DNA from: Pelomonas cellulosilytica
Lineage (GTDB): Bacteria; Pseudomonadota; Gammaproteobacteria; Burkholderiales; Burkholderiaceae_C
Assembly (NCBI RefSeq): GCF_021353265.1
Contig: NZ_JAJTWU010000003.1
Location: 62,001-126,000 of the forward strand
Direction: 5' to 3'
Length of the DNA: 64,000 nt
Of this stretch, positions 27,836 to 35,337 are shown one piece after another. The notes under the pieces were generated by a model. That model did not search any database and was not told the DNA's origin. It saw only the letters and a program-made list of their open reading frames with translations. Both the position numbers and the translations under genes were made by a program. Within the stretch, counting starts at the first letter, position 1; each line of letters begins with the position of its first letter.

Positions 27836-30001
27836 CTAGCGCCTCAGGAAATTGCAAATCTGCGCGTAGAGCCCCGCCGCACGGCGGGTGGAGACTTCCA
27901 GCTCCTGCAGCAGTGGCGCCACCGGCGGGCCGCCACGGGCATCGGCGATGTCCATGGCCGCGAGGCTGGCGTTGGTCAGGATGGCCGAAATGACCTCATC
28001 GGCCTCGCTGGCCGTGCTCTGCGCGGCCAGGCGCAGCGAGCTTTCCAGGTTGATCCGCGCCGTGTCGGCCCGGCGTGCTTCGCGCAGGTCCACCAGAGTC
28101 ACGACGAACCCGAGCGGCCGGCCATCGTTGCCCGTGATGGGCTCTGCATGCAGGGCGACGGGCACAGTGCCGGCACCCGCCAGCAGCAGATCCAGCTCAC
28201 GGCGCCAGCCATGCTGCGACGTGCGCATCTGCTCCAGCGCCTGGCGGACGACGTCCTCATGCGCAAAGAGCCCGGCCATGGGGCTGCCCTTGTCGACCGG
28301 CGCGCCGCGCAACGCCTGCAAGGCGTCGTTGACGAAGATGACCTCGCCCAGCGCGTTGCCCACCAGTACCGGCTCGCGCGCGCCGGCCACCGTGCCGCGG
28401 ATCTGCAGCAGTTGGTGCTCGGCGATCAGCAGCCGCACCGCCTGCACCTGCACGATGATGTCCACAAGTGCCACGCCGATGCCGCGCGCCAGGGCCACCT
28501 CGGTGGTGGACCAAGGCACCGCCGTGCCACGCACGAGCTCCGACCACGCTGCGAACGACCGCCGCGGCGACAGCTCCAGCGGGTTGCTGGCCACCATGGG
28601 CTTGGCCGGGTCGCCCGCCCAGGTGACGCTCTGCAGCTGCTCCTTGCGGAACCACATCAGCCAATCCGGACTGCGGCTGGACAGTCTCACGGCCAGTACG
28701 CCGCTGGCCGTGGGCGTGAGGCTGGCCAGCGCGGGGTTGGCCTGGCCCACCGACGAACAGGCGAACGGTGCATCGCCCGCCACCGGCTGCTCCTGAACCC
28801 AGGCCATCAGCGCGCGCAGCTCGGGCGTGGAAGGCGCCTCGCCCGTGGTCAGCACCTCGCCTTCGCAGAACAGCGCCGCGCCCGTAGCCTCCAGCGGCTG
28901 CAGTAGCGTGCGCGGGTTGCGGAACAGTGCGTAGCGCCATTCGCCCTCGGTGGATGTGGCCTCCACGAGGCGCTGCTCCAGGCGGCGCACCATCAGCGCG
29001 ACCTGCGCATGCGCGTAGTTCTCGATCGCCGAGATGCGCGTGGAGGCCACTTCCGCCAGCAGGTCGGCCGCGGCGCGCACCGTGCAGCGCAGATAGCGCG
29101 GCGAGTAGTGATGGCAGGCGATCAGGCCCCACAGCTGGCCCTCGCGCACGAGCGAGGCCGTCAACGTCGCCGTGACACCCATGTTGCGCAGGTACTGCAG
29201 GTGAATGGGCGACATGCTGCGCAGCTGGCACATGGACATGTCCAGCGGCGCCCCGGGGCCGGGCAGCAATGCCGGCATCAGCGGCGCCTGCACGGCATCC
29301 ACGTCCACCAGCATGCGCACGCGGTTGAGCAGGTACAGCGCGCGGGCGCGCTGCGGGATGTCACTGGCCGGATAGTGGTGGCCCAGCAGCGATTCCAGCC
29401 GCGGATGACGCGCCTCGGCGATGACCTTGCCATGGCCGTCGGGGTCGAACTTGTAGACGACGACGCGGTCATAGCCGGTCAGGTTGCGCACCACCTCGAC
29501 GACGGCGTCGGCCAGCACGCCGACCGACGGTGCCGCGCCGAAGCGCTGCAGCGCAGCCGACAGCGTGGCGGCCATCACGTCGGGGGCCAGGTCCTGCAGC
29601 TCGACCGCGGCATGTGCGCCGGCCGAGGGCTCCAGCTCCAGCACGAGCGGGCCGCCAGGCACCTGGTGCAGCGCGGCATCGAATGGCTGGAGGTCAGGGC
29701 CGATTCGGCACTGCAACGCCACCGGCTCGCGCAGGTCGGCGTCGCGCAGCCGGGTGATGCAGGCCTCGACGTCGCCACCCAGCACGCCCAGCGGCTGCTG
29801 CAGCAGCGCCCCGGGCGCCATGCCCAGCAGCGTCGCGACGTTGCCGCTGACCTGCAGCACATGCAGGTCAGCGGCGTCCAGCGATAGCAGCGCGCCATGT
29901 GGCTGCACGGCACCGGCCAGGTGGATGAGCTCGCGCTCGCAGTTGGTCAGGTCAGCCTGGCCGAATGCGGGTGCCGGCTGAGGCGATGCAGGATCTCGCA
30001 C
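27836..30001 (-). CDS. bphP: Bacteriophytochrome without histidine kinase domain (BphP)
   Basis: A 721-residue protein beginning at GTG 30001. PAS domain with the biliverdin-attaching Cys21 in LTNCERELIHLAGAVQPHGA; GAF domain with the DIP motif (HYPASDIPQRAR) and LIACHHYSPRYL; PHY domain with the tongue motif PRRSF. After about 515 there is another PAS-like domain (GNALGEVIFVNDALQAL) and a closing helical bundle (about 650-721); no H-box or ATPase domain is present. This matches the kinase-less phytochromes such as RpBphP1 of Rhodopseudomonas, which absorb far-red/near-infrared light and antagonise PpsR by direct binding. The adjacent ppsR gene, 17 bp upstream on the same strand, strongly supports this pairing here. 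Confidence 0.93.
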   Translation of the reverse strand: MRDPASPQPAPAFGQADLTNCERELIHLAGAVQPHGALLSLDAADLHVLQVSGNVATLLGMAPGALLQQPLGVLGGDVEACITRLRDADLREPVALQCRIGPDLQPFDAALHQVPGGPLVLELEPSAGAHAAVELQDLAPDVMAATLSAALQRFGAAPSVGVLADAVVEVVRNLTGYDRVVVYKFDPDGHGKVIAEARHPRLESLLGHHYPASDIPQRARALYLLNRVRMLVDVDAVQAPLMPALLPGPGAPLDMSMCQLRSMSPIHLQYLRNMGVTATLTASLVREGQLWGLIACHHYSPRYLRCTVRAAADLLAEVASTRISAIENYAHAQVALMVRRLEQRLVEATSTEGEWRYALFRNPRTLLQPLEATGAALFCEGEVLTTGEAPSTPELRALMAWVQEQPVAGDAPFACSSVGQANPALASLTPTASGVLAVRLSSRSPDWLMWFRKEQLQSVTWAGDPAKPMVASNPLELSPRRSFAAWSELVRGTAVPWSTTEVALARGIGVALVDIIVQVQAVRLLIAEHQLLQIRGTVAGAREPVLVGNALGEVIFVNDALQALRGAPVDKGSPMAGLFAHEDVVRQALEQMRTSQHGWRRELDLLLAGAGTVPVALHAEPITGNDGRPLGFVVTLVDLREARRADTARINLESSLRLAAQSTASEADEVISAILTNASLAAMDIADARGGPPVAPLLQELEVSTRRAAGLYAQICNFLRR

Positions 30002-30018
30002 GGTGATCGGCGCGGCGC

Positions 30019-31491
30019 TCAGTTGACCGAGGGCGGCTGGCCGACCGGACCCGCCGCGGGCGCGAGCGCCGCCAGGCCATGGCGCTGCAGGCGCTGGGCC
30101 AGCGCCTCGGGCGTCATGCCCAGCGCCTCGGCGGCCACGTCGCGCTGGCCGCCCACGCGCAGAAGCGCGCTGGCGATCAGCTGGCGCTCGGCGCGACTGG
30201 CCACCTCGACCAGCAGGTCCGCCAGCGGCACGCGGCCCACCTGGTCCAGCAGGCCGGACAGCACGTCGTCGCCGGCCAGGTGCGCCGGCAGGCGGTGGTC
30301 GGGCCGCAGCACGAAGCCCAGGCAGGTCTGCTCGCCCTCGGCCATCAGCGCCGCCGACGCCCGCACACGCTGCCGTCCGCCGTTGAGCGCCGGAAGGTCC
30401 AGTGCCATACCACCGACCAGCCCGCGGTCGCGTGCCTCGGCCACCAGTTGCGCCCAGCCGCCCGTGCCGTCCTGGAACAGCTCCGGCAGCGGCCGGCCGC
30501 GCAGCGCAGCCTCGTCTGCTTGGCGCACTAGCCTCAGGAAGGCCGGATTGGCCATCAGCACGCCGCCCGCGGAGTCGGTGATGACGAGGGCGTCCGGCGT
30601 CGTCTCGACGAATTCGGCCATGCGCGACACGGCCTGGCCGTCGTCGATGCGGCCGTCGTCGCGCCGCGCACGCAGCATCAGCTGCCGGCGGCCGTCGGCG
30701 CTGAATGGCGTCGCGGCGATGTCCAGTGCGACCGGCAGCCCCGGCCCGCGAACCCGCATCTCACCCGCCCGCCCGGTGCTGCGCGCGGCGACCAGCAACT
30801 CCAGCACCGCCTTGCTGGCACCCGGCGGCAGCAGGTCGGGCAGCGAGTGGTTCAGGAGGTCGGCCACCTCACGGCCGAGCAGCTCCCCCGTGACCGCATT
30901 GGCCTGCATGACGACGAGGCTGCTCGCGTCCAGCACCAGCGTGGCGTCGTTGGCGACCTGGAAGAGCAATTGATAGCGGTTCTCGGCCTGGCGGCGGCTC
31001 CAGTAGTGCCGCTCCATGTCCTTCTGAGCCTCGACGAAGCGCTGCTGGATGGCAGCCACGGCGCGCAGGTCGCGGCCCACGGCCAGCACGGGGCCGTCGG
31101 CGCCGAGCCGGATCGCCGACCAGGTGACGGGCAGTTCATCCCCGCCCTGCCCCGGGTGCATGACCTCGCGCCGGCGCGAGACCACGCCGCTGCTCGACAC
31201 CTCGTCCAGCAGCGACTGGATCTTGGGACGCGTGACGGCGCTGACAGTGTCGATCCAGCGACGCCCCACCCACTCACGGCAGCCCTGGGCCTGCACCGCG
31301 GCGCCCTCGGCCACGACGGAGATGATGCCGTCGCGGTCTATGACGAGCGCAATGTCGCTGGCGACGCGGGCGATGGTCGTCGCCAGCTCACTGGCCAGCG
31401 GCGACAGCGCACTGAGGTCGGGGTCTTGAGGTGTGGGCACCGGAGCGATCTCGATCAGTTGTGAGGCACGGACGCGATGTGAACGGCACAT
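30019..31491 (-). CDS. ppsR: PpsR/CrtJ photosynthesis-gene repressor
   Basis: A 490-residue protein if ATG 31491 is used; GTG 31440 (VPTPQDPDL) is an alternative. Tandem PAS domains (about 40-130, 170-280 and 290-400) are followed by a Fis-type helix-turn-helix at the C-terminus (AERQLIASALLRVGGQRDVAAEALGMTPEAL). PpsR/CrtJ represses bch, crt and puf genes under oxygen or light by binding TGT-N12-ACA palindromes; such sites occur upstream of bchC, crtE/crtD and crtI in this window. A conserved redox-type Cys is seen before the helix-turn-helix (EQTCLGFVL). It lies between pufC and bphP on the same strand. Confidence 0.93.
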   Translation of the reverse strand: MCRSHRVRASQLIEIAPVPTPQDPDLSALSPLASELATTIARVASDIALVIDRDGIISVVAEGAAVQAQGCREWVGRRWIDTVSAVTRPKIQSLLDEVSSSGVVSRRREVMHPGQGGDELPVTWSAIRLGADGPVLAVGRDLRAVAAIQQRFVEAQKDMERHYWSRRQAENRYQLLFQVANDATLVLDASSLVVMQANAVTGELLGREVADLLNHSLPDLLPPGASKAVLELLVAARSTGRAGEMRVRGPGLPVALDIAATPFSADGRRQLMLRARRDDGRIDDGQAVSRMAEFVETTPDALVITDSAGGVLMANPAFLRLVRQADEAALRGRPLPELFQDGTGGWAQLVAEARDRGLVGGMALDLPALNGGRQRVRASAALMAEGEQTCLGFVLRPDHRLPAHLAGDDVLSGLLDQVGRVPLADLLVEVASRAERQLIASALLRVGGQRDVAAEALGMTPEALAQRLQRHGLAALAPAAGPVGQPPSVN

Positions 31492-32660: not shown

Positions 32661-32819
32661 TCATACCCCCGAGGTCGCTTCGGACCGCCGCGCCGCATCG
32701 CCCGGCACCGTGACGGCACAGCCGTTCTGCATGGCCAGCATGGCGCCGGTTTCGCAAAGCCCGTGGCACAGGCCCGCCCACAGCGTGTGGGCCCAATGCG
32801 TGATCTGCGCGCGGCTCAT
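32661..32819 (-). CDS. Small 52-aa ORF between pufM and pufC, ATGA-coupled on both sides
   Basis: Starts at ATG 32819, overlapping the pufM stop (ATGA), and ends with TGA overlapping ATG 32664 at the head of pufC. The peptide begins [18 protein letters not shown] and has three Cys, two Trp and a mildly hydrophobic centre ([16 protein letters not shown]) but no clear transmembrane helix. The initiation regions before this ORF and before pufC share the 10-mer CCTCGGGGGT, and both upstream proteins end with SGV-like residues, hinting at a local duplication. It resembles no protein I recognise. Its position recalls pufX of Rhodobacter (directly after pufM), but the sequence does not match PufX. 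It may be real, or a coupling ORF. Confidence 0.55.
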
Positions 32820-34738: not shown

Positions 34739-34924
34739 CTACTTCGGCGCAGGCGCCGGCATCGCCGAGTTCTGCACCACCGGTTTGGTGTTGGGCCCGT
34801 CGAGCCAGTTGTACTTGTTGGTACTGAGTAGCACGAAGTGAATCACCAGTGCCAGTACGAACAGGAACGCAAACAACGCGACCAGCGCTCGGCGCGGGTC
34901 GAACAGCAACCAAATCTTCCACAT
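34739..34924 (-). CDS. pufA: LH1 antenna alpha subunit
   Basis: A 61-residue protein starting [20 protein letters not shown], the classical LH1 alpha beginning. A single transmembrane helix (about 12-36) carries His in [17 protein letters not shown], which binds bacteriochlorophyll. The Pro/Ala-rich C-terminus (PAPAPK) may be processed. An AGGAG ribosome binding site precedes the ATG. Unusually it is separated from pufB by a 74-residue gene. Confidence 0.96.
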
Positions 34925-34935
34925 GCTTGGATCTC

Positions 34936-35160
34936 CTATTGCAGGTGAGACATGAAGGTGTAGACACCCGAACGCACACCCCGGATCAACGATTTCTCGC
35001 CTTCCGCGCCGGGCAGCCACGTTCGCCAGTCCAGGAACAGCACCTGGGCGGCAAGCGCGATCAACAGCACGAGGACGAAGCTGACGAGGAACAGGCCCCC
35101 GAAGGCTTGGCTGTCCTGCGACGCCGCGGGCGCGGCTGGGAGGGTCGTGATCTGGGCCAT
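34936..35160 (-). CDS. Uncharacterised 74-aa single-helix membrane protein between pufB and pufA
   Basis: A clear gene: ATG 35160 with ribosome binding site AGAGG, stop 11 bp before the pufA start. A 21-residue soluble N-terminus ([17 protein letters not shown]) is followed by a transmembrane helix ([20 protein letters not shown], about 20-39) and a C-terminal segment ([20 protein letters not shown], then VYTFMSHLQ) likely amphipathic. It lacks the bacteriochlorophyll-binding His in the membrane helix seen in LH1 alpha and beta, so it is probably not an antenna subunit. The location inside the LH1 operon suggests an accessory or closing subunit of the RC-LH1 complex (functionally like PufX or protein W) or an assembly factor. 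I do not recognise a characterised family. Confidence 0.8.
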
Positions 35161-35187
35161 GGCGGACCTCTTTCCTTCAGTGGGGGG

Positions 35188-35337
35188 TCAGAGCCAGGGA
35201 CGCCACATCCACACCAGCACATGGGCCACGGCGGCAACCACCGTGAACCCGATGAAGCTGGACATGAAGATGCCGTGGAATTCCCTGGCTTCGTTCTCGG
35301 TGAGCCCGGACAACGAGCCCGATCTGTTGTCAGCCAT
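35188..35337 (-). CDS. pufB: LH1 antenna beta subunit
   Basis: A 49-residue protein starting [20 protein letters not shown] with ATG 35337 behind AGGAG. The beta-type N-terminus ([13 protein letters not shown]) leads into one transmembrane helix, and the bacteriochlorophyll-binding His lies in [17 protein letters not shown], ending with the typical W-R-P-W. It is 118 bp behind bchZ. No PpsR palindrome was found in that gap, so expression may depend on the bchC and crtE promoters upstream or on a promoter inside bchZ. Confidence 0.96.

What the first reader, a model, noticed from the sequence alone, without database searches (positions are those of the whole stretch)
34936..35160. Unrecognised single-helix protein encoded between pufB and pufA
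LH1 genes normally sit directly together as pufBA. Here a well-formed gene (ribosome binding site AGAGG, 74 codons, tight spacing to pufA) separates them. Its membrane helix lacks the antenna His, and its end ([10 protein letters not shown] and VYTFMSHLQ) looks like a defined soluble segment. Co-expression with LH1 at antenna-level stoichiometry suggests an RC-LH1 accessory or ring-gap subunit analogous to PufX or protein W.
Basis: partly seen in the sequence, partly recalled or inferred. Interest (0 to 1): 0.75.

Follow-up and report, generated by a model that had tools for sequence, protein, structure and literature searches.

The report
Antenna protein copy lacking its pigment ligand
Between the two antenna genes of this photosynthetic bacterium sits a third gene that looks like a copy of one antenna protein which lost the amino acid that holds bacteriochlorophyll but kept its surroundings and a tail; most photosynthetic relatives examined carry it, and nobody yet knows what it does.

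Summary
In detail: a 74-codon gene (35160-34936, minus strand) lies between pufB and pufA, 27 and 11 nt away, with a good ribosome-binding site. It is not newly seen: it is ORF2 of Rubrivivax gelatinosus and ORF74 of Roseateles depolymerans, printed as ORFs without function. Its ancestry I found nowhere in the papers searched: it is a paralogue of the LH1 beta polypeptide. Profile comparison gives 99.5% with long beta, 97.4% with short PufB, 1.1% with PufA. None of 103 distinct homologues has the BChl-ligating His (90 have Gln), yet Ala-4, Trp+6 and Trp+9 of the beta pigment site are kept in 102 or 103. It carries a C-terminal tail that the neighbouring PufB lacks. Of 49 Burkholderiales genomes with pufM in a sample, 38 carry it, 3 carry a relative upstream of pufB, 5 have only a long PufB, 3 are unreadable. 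A related ORF (X), missed by Pfam, sits between bchZ and pufB in 13 of 32 other phototrophs, where others have PufQ; X resembles PufQ weakly. Most likely ORF2 is a BChl-ligand-free beta-type partner of LH1 (structural or assembly); a PufQ-like regulator is the main rival. Function is untested.

The parts
34936..35160 (-). ORF2/ORF74 homologue: 74-aa His-less LH1 beta paralogue (N-tail, one membrane helix, WRxWLPGAEG motif, C-terminal helix)
35167..35177 (-). Shine-Dalgarno-like AAGGAAAGAGG, 6 nt before the ATG
   Evidence: gap sequence printed
35188..35337 (-). pufB, LH1 beta, short form (49 aa, ends WRPWL)
   Evidence: NF040862 91.7 bits, PF00556 48.6 bits
34739..34924 (-). pufA, LH1 alpha (61 aa)
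   Evidence: NF040861 78.9 bits, PF00556 63.2 bits
33809..34633 (-). pufL, reaction-centre L subunit (start codon inferred)
   Evidence: TIGR01157 444 bits
32816..33796 (-). pufM, reaction-centre M subunit
   Evidence: TIGR01115 552.5 bits, over cut-off, in own genome
34637..34741 (-). pufA-pufL spacer that folds better than most shuffles (z -2.3; 5 of 200 as good); possible end of an abundant pufB-ORF2-pufA mRNA
   Evidence: role inferred

Best explanation
Shown: the gene is a paralogue of the LH1 beta polypeptide. It has lost the His that ligates bacteriochlorophyll (to Gln in most members) and the N-terminal beta motif, kept Ala-4 and the Trp-Arg-x-Trp interface motif of the beta pigment site, and carries a C-terminal tail that the neighbouring PufB lacks. 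Inferred: it inserts like beta (N-terminus in the cytoplasm), packs against LH1 alpha in a beta-type site without holding a BChl in the normal way, and its tail helix lies on the periplasmic face. As a ligand-free 'beta-prime' it would either occupy one or a few places of the LH1 ring (interrupting the pigment row, for example as a quinone portal or a contact to the RC cytochrome) or serve as a scaffold on which alpha is held while LH1 assembles.
For: PDB sequence search: LH1 beta chains lead the list (profile, best 4.5e-17). hhalign: ORF2-long beta 99.5%, ORF2-short beta 97.4%, ORF2-PufA 1.1%; column-shuffle null 0 of 60 for both beta comparisons. Tree of 96 rows: ORF2 one clade (98/95), joined to beta with X and PufQ outside (98/95). 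In 103 distinct proteins chosen by position: His0 in 0, Gln in 90, Ala-4 in 103, Trp+6 in 102, Trp+9 in 102; Arg+7 in 107 of 108 of a motif-chosen set. The beta Trp whose H-bond to the BChl acetyl is described in PMC10214105 (passages) is Trp+9 by recalled numbering. Trp+6, Arg+7 and Trp+9 are kept in only 4, 5 and 1 of 16 X and 0, 1 and 0 of 5 PufQ rows, so ORF2 alone of the three groups is held to this part of the beta pigment site. Linkage to pufB and pufA, co-occurrence with pufM, purifying selection. ORF74 RNA follows pufB and pufA more than pufL and pufM in an R. depolymerans sigma-factor mutant (2.34, 1.09 and 0.71% remaining against 9.61 and 15.33%; PMC10037100).
Against: No biochemistry. 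No ORF2 member is seen among the PDB matches, so incorporation into RC-LH1 is unseen. ORF2 also matches the X family (97.8-98.7%), which sits at PufQ's place, so a regulatory role cannot be excluded. Ala-4 does not discriminate: it is kept in 10 of 16 X and 5 of 5 PufQ rows too. Eight of 46 readable Burkholderiales phototrophs lack ORF2 between pufB and pufA. AlphaFold model is of low confidence (pLDDT 67.7) and Foldseek found no PDB match. Kept Trp and Arg could reflect the membrane interface alone. The tree rests on 73 columns, its bootstrap had not settled and three X rows are long branches.
Confidence: 0.5

Rival explanations
1. ORF2 is the Burkholderiales counterpart of PufQ: a ligand-free, beta-derived one-helix protein that steers tetrapyrrole flux or BChl delivery (in Rhodobacter sphaeroides PufQ is reported to bind ferrochelatase) and is made together with LH1.
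For: The X family (16 loci) sits between bchZ and pufB like PufQ and is homologous to ORF2 (97.8-98.7%). X-PufQ profile similarity is 55-90% by set and direction, 0 of 60 shuffles; PufQ groups with one X row in the tree (98/91). In the stretches read no locus holds two of PufQ, X and ORF2. [quoted passage not shown]
Against: Direct ORF2-PufQ similarity is weak (25.6%; 4 of 60 shuffles as good) and there is no PF05398 match. ORF2 lies on the beta side of the tree and keeps Trp+6, Arg+7 and Trp+9, which most X and all or nearly all PufQ rows lack. If topology is as in beta, the tail is periplasmic and could not meet ferrochelatase in the cytoplasm. 9 of 32 non-Burkholderiales and 5 of 46 readable Burkholderiales loci show neither PufQ, X nor ORF2.
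Confidence: 0.3
2. ORF2 is a pigmented variant beta: Gln39 (or a water) ligates BChl and the protein is an ordinary, spectrally shifted ring member.
For: Gln in 90 of 103; Ala-4, Trp+6 and Trp+9 kept. Gln is known as a chlorophyll ligand in other proteins (recalled).
Against: The site also holds Thr (6), Ser (2), Lys (2), Gly, Glu and Leu (1 each), not all of which can ligate Mg; His-18 is not conserved either (His in 5 of 103).
Confidence: 0.12
3. The gene is a decaying duplicate of pufB without function.
For: It has lost the ligand His, and 8 of 46 readable Burkholderiales phototrophs lack it at this place.
Against: dN/dS 0.18, intact frame, conserved tail and place over many genera.
Confidence: 0.03

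Closest known systems
ORF2 of Rubrivivax gelatinosus / ORF74 of Roseateles depolymerans
   Same: Same gene, same place. R. gelatinosus loci L059 and L062 and R. depolymerans L019 are among the homologues.
   Different: Printed without a function. PMC12817894 (section 8) aligned ORF2 with PufA1 and PufA2, saw low identity and no His, and rejected a PufA2 origin from it; in that section there is no comparison of ORF2 with beta (its Fig. S6 was not seen).
LH1 beta polypeptide (PufB), long form
   Same: Helix, Ala-4, Trp+6, Arg+7, Trp+9, PG motif and tail; hhalign 99.5%.
   Different: No ligand His, His-18 not conserved, no N-terminal beta motif; below the Pfam and NCBIfam beta cut-offs.
X, ORF between bchZ and pufB not recognised by Pfam
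   Same: Homologous over helix and tail (98.7%); no His at the ligand place in 15 of 16 rows.
   Different: Lies upstream of pufB; Arg at the His place in 14 of 16 and Pro at +3 in 14 of 16; Trp+9 in 1 of 16; with a long beta in 12 of 13 non-Burkholderiales loci.
PufQ (PF05398)
   Same: Small one-helix puf-operon protein, linked to ORF2 through X.
   Different: Different place in the operon, weak direct similarity (25.6%), Trp at the His place in 5 of 5.
PufX, protein W, gamma and gamma-like subunits
   Same: Small one-helix proteins of RC-LH1 without antenna His (recalled; for the Rhodopila gamma-like polypeptides lying between betas: PMC9640540 passages). A functional analogy only.
   Different: No sequence match found.

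Membership tests
LH1 beta (PF00556, NF040862) | score above curated family cut-off | tested here: not met
   0 families for the window protein; two homologues reach 11.3-13.2 bits against cut-offs of 23 and 61
LH1 beta (PF00556, NF040862) | His ligand to BChl in the helix | tested here: not met
   0 of 103 distinct position-chosen homologues
LH1 beta (PF00556, NF040862) | common descent with beta over helix and tail | tested here: met
   hhalign 99.5%, shuffle null 0 of 60, tree
LH1 beta (PF00556, NF040862) | Ala-4, Trp+6, Trp+9 of the pigment site | tested here: met
   103, 102 and 102 of 103
LH1 beta (PF00556, NF040862) | pairs with alpha and is built into the ring | not testable with these tools
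   needs a purified complex
PufQ (PF05398) | score above Pfam cut-off | tested here: not met
   no match; PufQ rows match, 9 of 9 scanned (of 10 loci)
PufQ (PF05398) | profile similarity | tested here: inconclusive
   direct 25.6%, 4 of 60 shuffles as good; through X 97.8% and 61.6%
PufQ (PF05398) | gene between bchZ and pufB | tested here: not met
   between pufB and pufA
PufQ (PF05398) | binds ferrochelatase, controls BChl flux | not testable with these tools
   needs pull-down and deletion
PufX (PF11511) | Pfam match | tested here: not met
   no match for the window protein
Protein W / gamma subunits | sequence match to solved chains | tested here: not met
   of 6z5r, 6z5s, 6et5 and 7xxf only beta-type chains matched; that the W and gamma chains are in the file was not checked

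The most novel reading that the evidence does not exclude
Many purple bacteria carry, beside their antenna genes, one descendant of the LH1 beta polypeptide that has given up the pigment ligand: PufQ in one group, X in many other Pseudomonadota (15 of 16 X rows without the His), ORF2 in most Burkholderiales. PufQ would then be an antenna protein turned regulator, and in Burkholderiales the same kind of protein would have returned to the antenna as a pigment-free ring member that opens, caps or nucleates LH1.
Probability: 0.3. Interest if true: 0.85.

Novelty: new variant of a known kind. Interest (0 to 1): 0.62.

Why it matters
It gives an ancestry and testable roles to an ORF that, by the citation in PMC12817894, goes back to a 1994 paper and is present in most phototrophic Burkholderiales sampled. 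If it sits in LH1 it would be a beta-type ring subunit that gives up its own pigment ligand, relevant to how quinones leave the ring. If it acts like PufQ it would address the printed question of how purple bacteria without PufQ control the haem/BChl branchpoint (PMC5725709). The X family ties both questions to one origin in the antenna.

Tried and rejected
Chance ORF: rejected. Alpha-type origin: rejected (1.1%; see also PMC12817894). PufX: no Pfam match. Phage origin: no PHROG. Structure: AlphaFold from 45 rows gave helix 12-48 and helix 57-73 at pLDDT 67.7, and Foldseek against the PDB gave 0 matches, so the model adds nothing to the beta claim. Codon usage as a guide to stoichiometry: pufB, ORF2 and pufA all have low CAI (0.48, 0.51, 0.41) against pufL and pufM (0.71), with a reference of only 5 ribosomal genes; not usable. 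Tail test: a profile of X tails scores the tails of 4 of 4 distinct Burkholderiales long betas at 6.1-13.2 and 16 other long betas at -5 to 2.7 (-5 set where there was no hit), but ORF2 tails only at median 0.2 (108 rows), so it supports an X-like tail on those long betas and not an X origin of ORF2. My first residue count (108 rows) used a regular expression that excluded rows with both beta His, so I repeated it on proteins chosen by position. The X-PufQ probability moved between 55 and 90% with set and direction; I treat it as suggestive.

Literature: searched open-access PMC only. Nagashima 1994 and Suyama 2002 were not read (cited through other papers), so an earlier remark on beta likeness cannot be excluded.

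Full report
The gene. On the minus strand the order is bchZ, pufB (35337-35188), the 74-codon ORF (35160-34936), pufA (34924-34739), pufL, pufM (bchZ named by recall from its position and sequence). The ORF starts 27 nt after pufB and ends 11 nt before pufA, and the gap before it holds AAGGAAAGAGG. The window lies in a 6.35-Mb genome. The contig of a same-genus genome, G018, has the same length and match position as that of Roseateles puraquae CCUG 52769, so the host is a Roseateles-type bacterium.

Known name. PMC12817894 (section 8 read) says that the puf operon of Rubrivivax gelatinosus has two ORFs of unknown function, ORF2 lying upstream of pufA, citing Nagashima 1994; it aligned ORF2 with Gemmatimonadota PufA1 and PufA2 (10.1-14.5% identity to PufA2, no His) and rejected that PufA2 came from it. 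PMC10037100 (passages) names ORF74 (RD2015_RS05155, between pufB RS05150 and pufA RS05160) in Roseateles depolymerans, co-transcribed with pufB and pufA as a major 1-kb transcript (citing Suyama 2002); these three loci showed the greatest changes under carbon starvation. The gene is in the R. gelatinosus, R. benzoatilyticus and R. depolymerans contigs that I fetched (L059, L062, L064, L019).

What it is. Pfam, NCBIfam and PHROGs give nothing for the window protein. Against PDB sequences the best hits are LH1 beta chains (9.7e-9 alone; 4.5e-17 with a 45-row profile). No chain scores like an ORF2 member, so no solved structure seems to hold one. Profile comparison: ORF2-long beta 99.5%, ORF2-short beta 97.4%, ORF2-PufA 1.1%. 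Shuffling alignment columns inside and outside the helix gave scores as high in 0 of 60 for both beta comparisons. A tree of 96 rows (73 columns, bootstrap not settled, three long X rows) puts all 33 ORF2 rows in one clade (98/95) next to beta, with X and PufQ beyond a 98/95 branch.

What it lost and kept. In 103 distinct proteins chosen by their place between pufB and pufA, the BChl-ligand position is Gln 90, Thr 6, Ser 2, Lys 2, Gly 1, Glu 1, Leu 1, His 0. Ala-4 is kept in 103, Trp+6 and Trp+9 in 102 each; Arg+7 in 107 of 108 of an earlier, overlapping, motif-chosen set. The second beta His (-18) is not conserved (His in 5 of 103). PMC10214105 (passages) describes the beta Trp H-bond to the BChl acetyl; that this Trp is +9 is recalled numbering. 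In 16 X rows Trp+6 is kept in 4, Arg+7 in 5 and Trp+9 in 1; in 5 PufQ rows in 0, 1 and 0; Ala-4 is kept in 10 of 16 and 5 of 5, so it does not separate the groups. ORF2 is thus still held to the periplasmic part of the beta pigment site, except for the ligand.

Selection. In the window and 11 Roseateles-type loci the median dN/dS is 0.18 for ORF2 (65 pairs), 0.15 for pufB (66) and 0.13 for pufA (44). Synonymous differences are larger in ORF2 (0.47 against 0.24 and 0.34), which could mean weaker codon constraint and would speak against equal expression.

Distribution. Genome contigs: 283 of 315 pattern matches encode a relative and the best 80 were kept; all 80 have pufA after ORF2, and pufB before it in the 78 with upstream sequence. 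Over 141 loci, some of them the same place fetched twice: 128 pufB-ORF2-pufA, 2 ORF2-pufA, 1 pufB-ORF2 at a contig end, 3 X-pufB-pufA, 5 pufB-pufA, 2 unreadable. In 399 Burkholderiales genomes (the order of the window) the ORF2 profile hits 47 and pufM 49, 48 of them over its cut-off. Reading the loci: of the 49 pufM genomes, 38 have ORF2, 3 (one genus, G104, G224, G255) have an X-type gene upstream of pufB, 5 (G064, G289, G319, G201, G215) have only a long PufB, and 3 end at a contig edge (G182, G336, G395); one further ORF2 genome (G310) has no pufM hit. In the stretches read, no locus shows two of the three. A whole-genome X-profile search of 17 genomes found separate X genes only in the 3 genomes already known; other hits fall on pufB or on weak short frames that I did not all read.

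The tail. In the ORF2-bearing loci printed PufB is short, stopping at or just after the WRPW motif; long-beta Burkholderiales carry an ORF2-like tail on PufB itself. Tails of 4 of 4 distinct long betas from these genomes score 6.1-13.2 against an X-tail model, and 16 other long betas -5 to 2.7; ORF2 tails score low (median 0.2 of 108). One reading is that a long beta was duplicated in Burkholderiales, one copy keeping the pigment and the other the tail; the tree, with two long Burkholderiales betas at the base of the beta clade, fits this but does not prove it.

X and PufQ. None of 16 X rows reaches a Pfam cut-off (best PufQ match E 0.021, 15.4 bits against 22.1); of six X rows scanned against NCBIfam, L148 and L127 match the LH1 beta model weakly (E 0.0012 and 0.034, below cut-off). 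Nine of nine PufQ rows scanned are true PufQ. X-PufQ similarity is 55-90% by set and direction, 0 of 60 shuffles. One X row (L176) still has a His at the ligand place. PufQ in Rhodobacter sphaeroides is reported to bind ferrochelatase, and its C-terminus was predicted cytoplasmic (PMC5725709, passages and section 13). Homology to beta would predict the opposite side; this is open.

Mechanism. I commit to a ligand-free beta-type partner of LH1, structural or assembly (0.5), because ORF2 alone of the three groups keeps Trp+6, Arg+7 and Trp+9 of the beta pigment site and lies between pufB and pufA on their transcript. PufQ-like regulation is the main rival (0.3). Shown: ancestry, residue pattern, linkage, selection. 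Inferred: topology, pairing with alpha, copy number, effect on the ring. Not shown: any function.

Noticed in passing
window 32661-32819, minus strand: A 52-aa ORF overlaps the pufM stop and the pufC start (ATGA-type overlaps), with no Pfam match; R. depolymerans lists an ORF77 between pufM and pufC by locus number (PMC10037100).
   Followed up: partly
L148, L150, L152, L156, L157, L164, L167, L173, L174, L176, L179, L180, L199 (upstream of pufB): One-helix family X between bchZ and pufB in other Pseudomonadota, not recognised by Pfam, homologous to LH1 beta and weakly to PufQ.
   Followed up: yes
L129 (G087), pufB-ORF2 end: This ORF2 ends in an X-like tail (KAANSVIPLMFM), an intermediate between ORF2 and X or long beta.
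   Followed up: no
PDB chain 8k5o_4 (hit): A 105-aa 'alpha/beta subunit domain-containing' chain present once in its entry matches ORF2 weakly (E 3e-4 with the profile); a possible precedent for a single-copy beta-type chain.
   Followed up: no
window 27836-31491, minus strand: A bacteriophytochrome-like protein (PAS-GAF-PHY-PAS, no kinase domain matched) lies next to a PAS/Fis-type HTH regulator that looks like PpsR (the name PpsR is recalled).
   Followed up: partly
window 34739-35337: pufB, ORF2 and pufA share a low codon adaptation index (0.41-0.51) against 0.71 for pufL and pufM.
   Followed up: no
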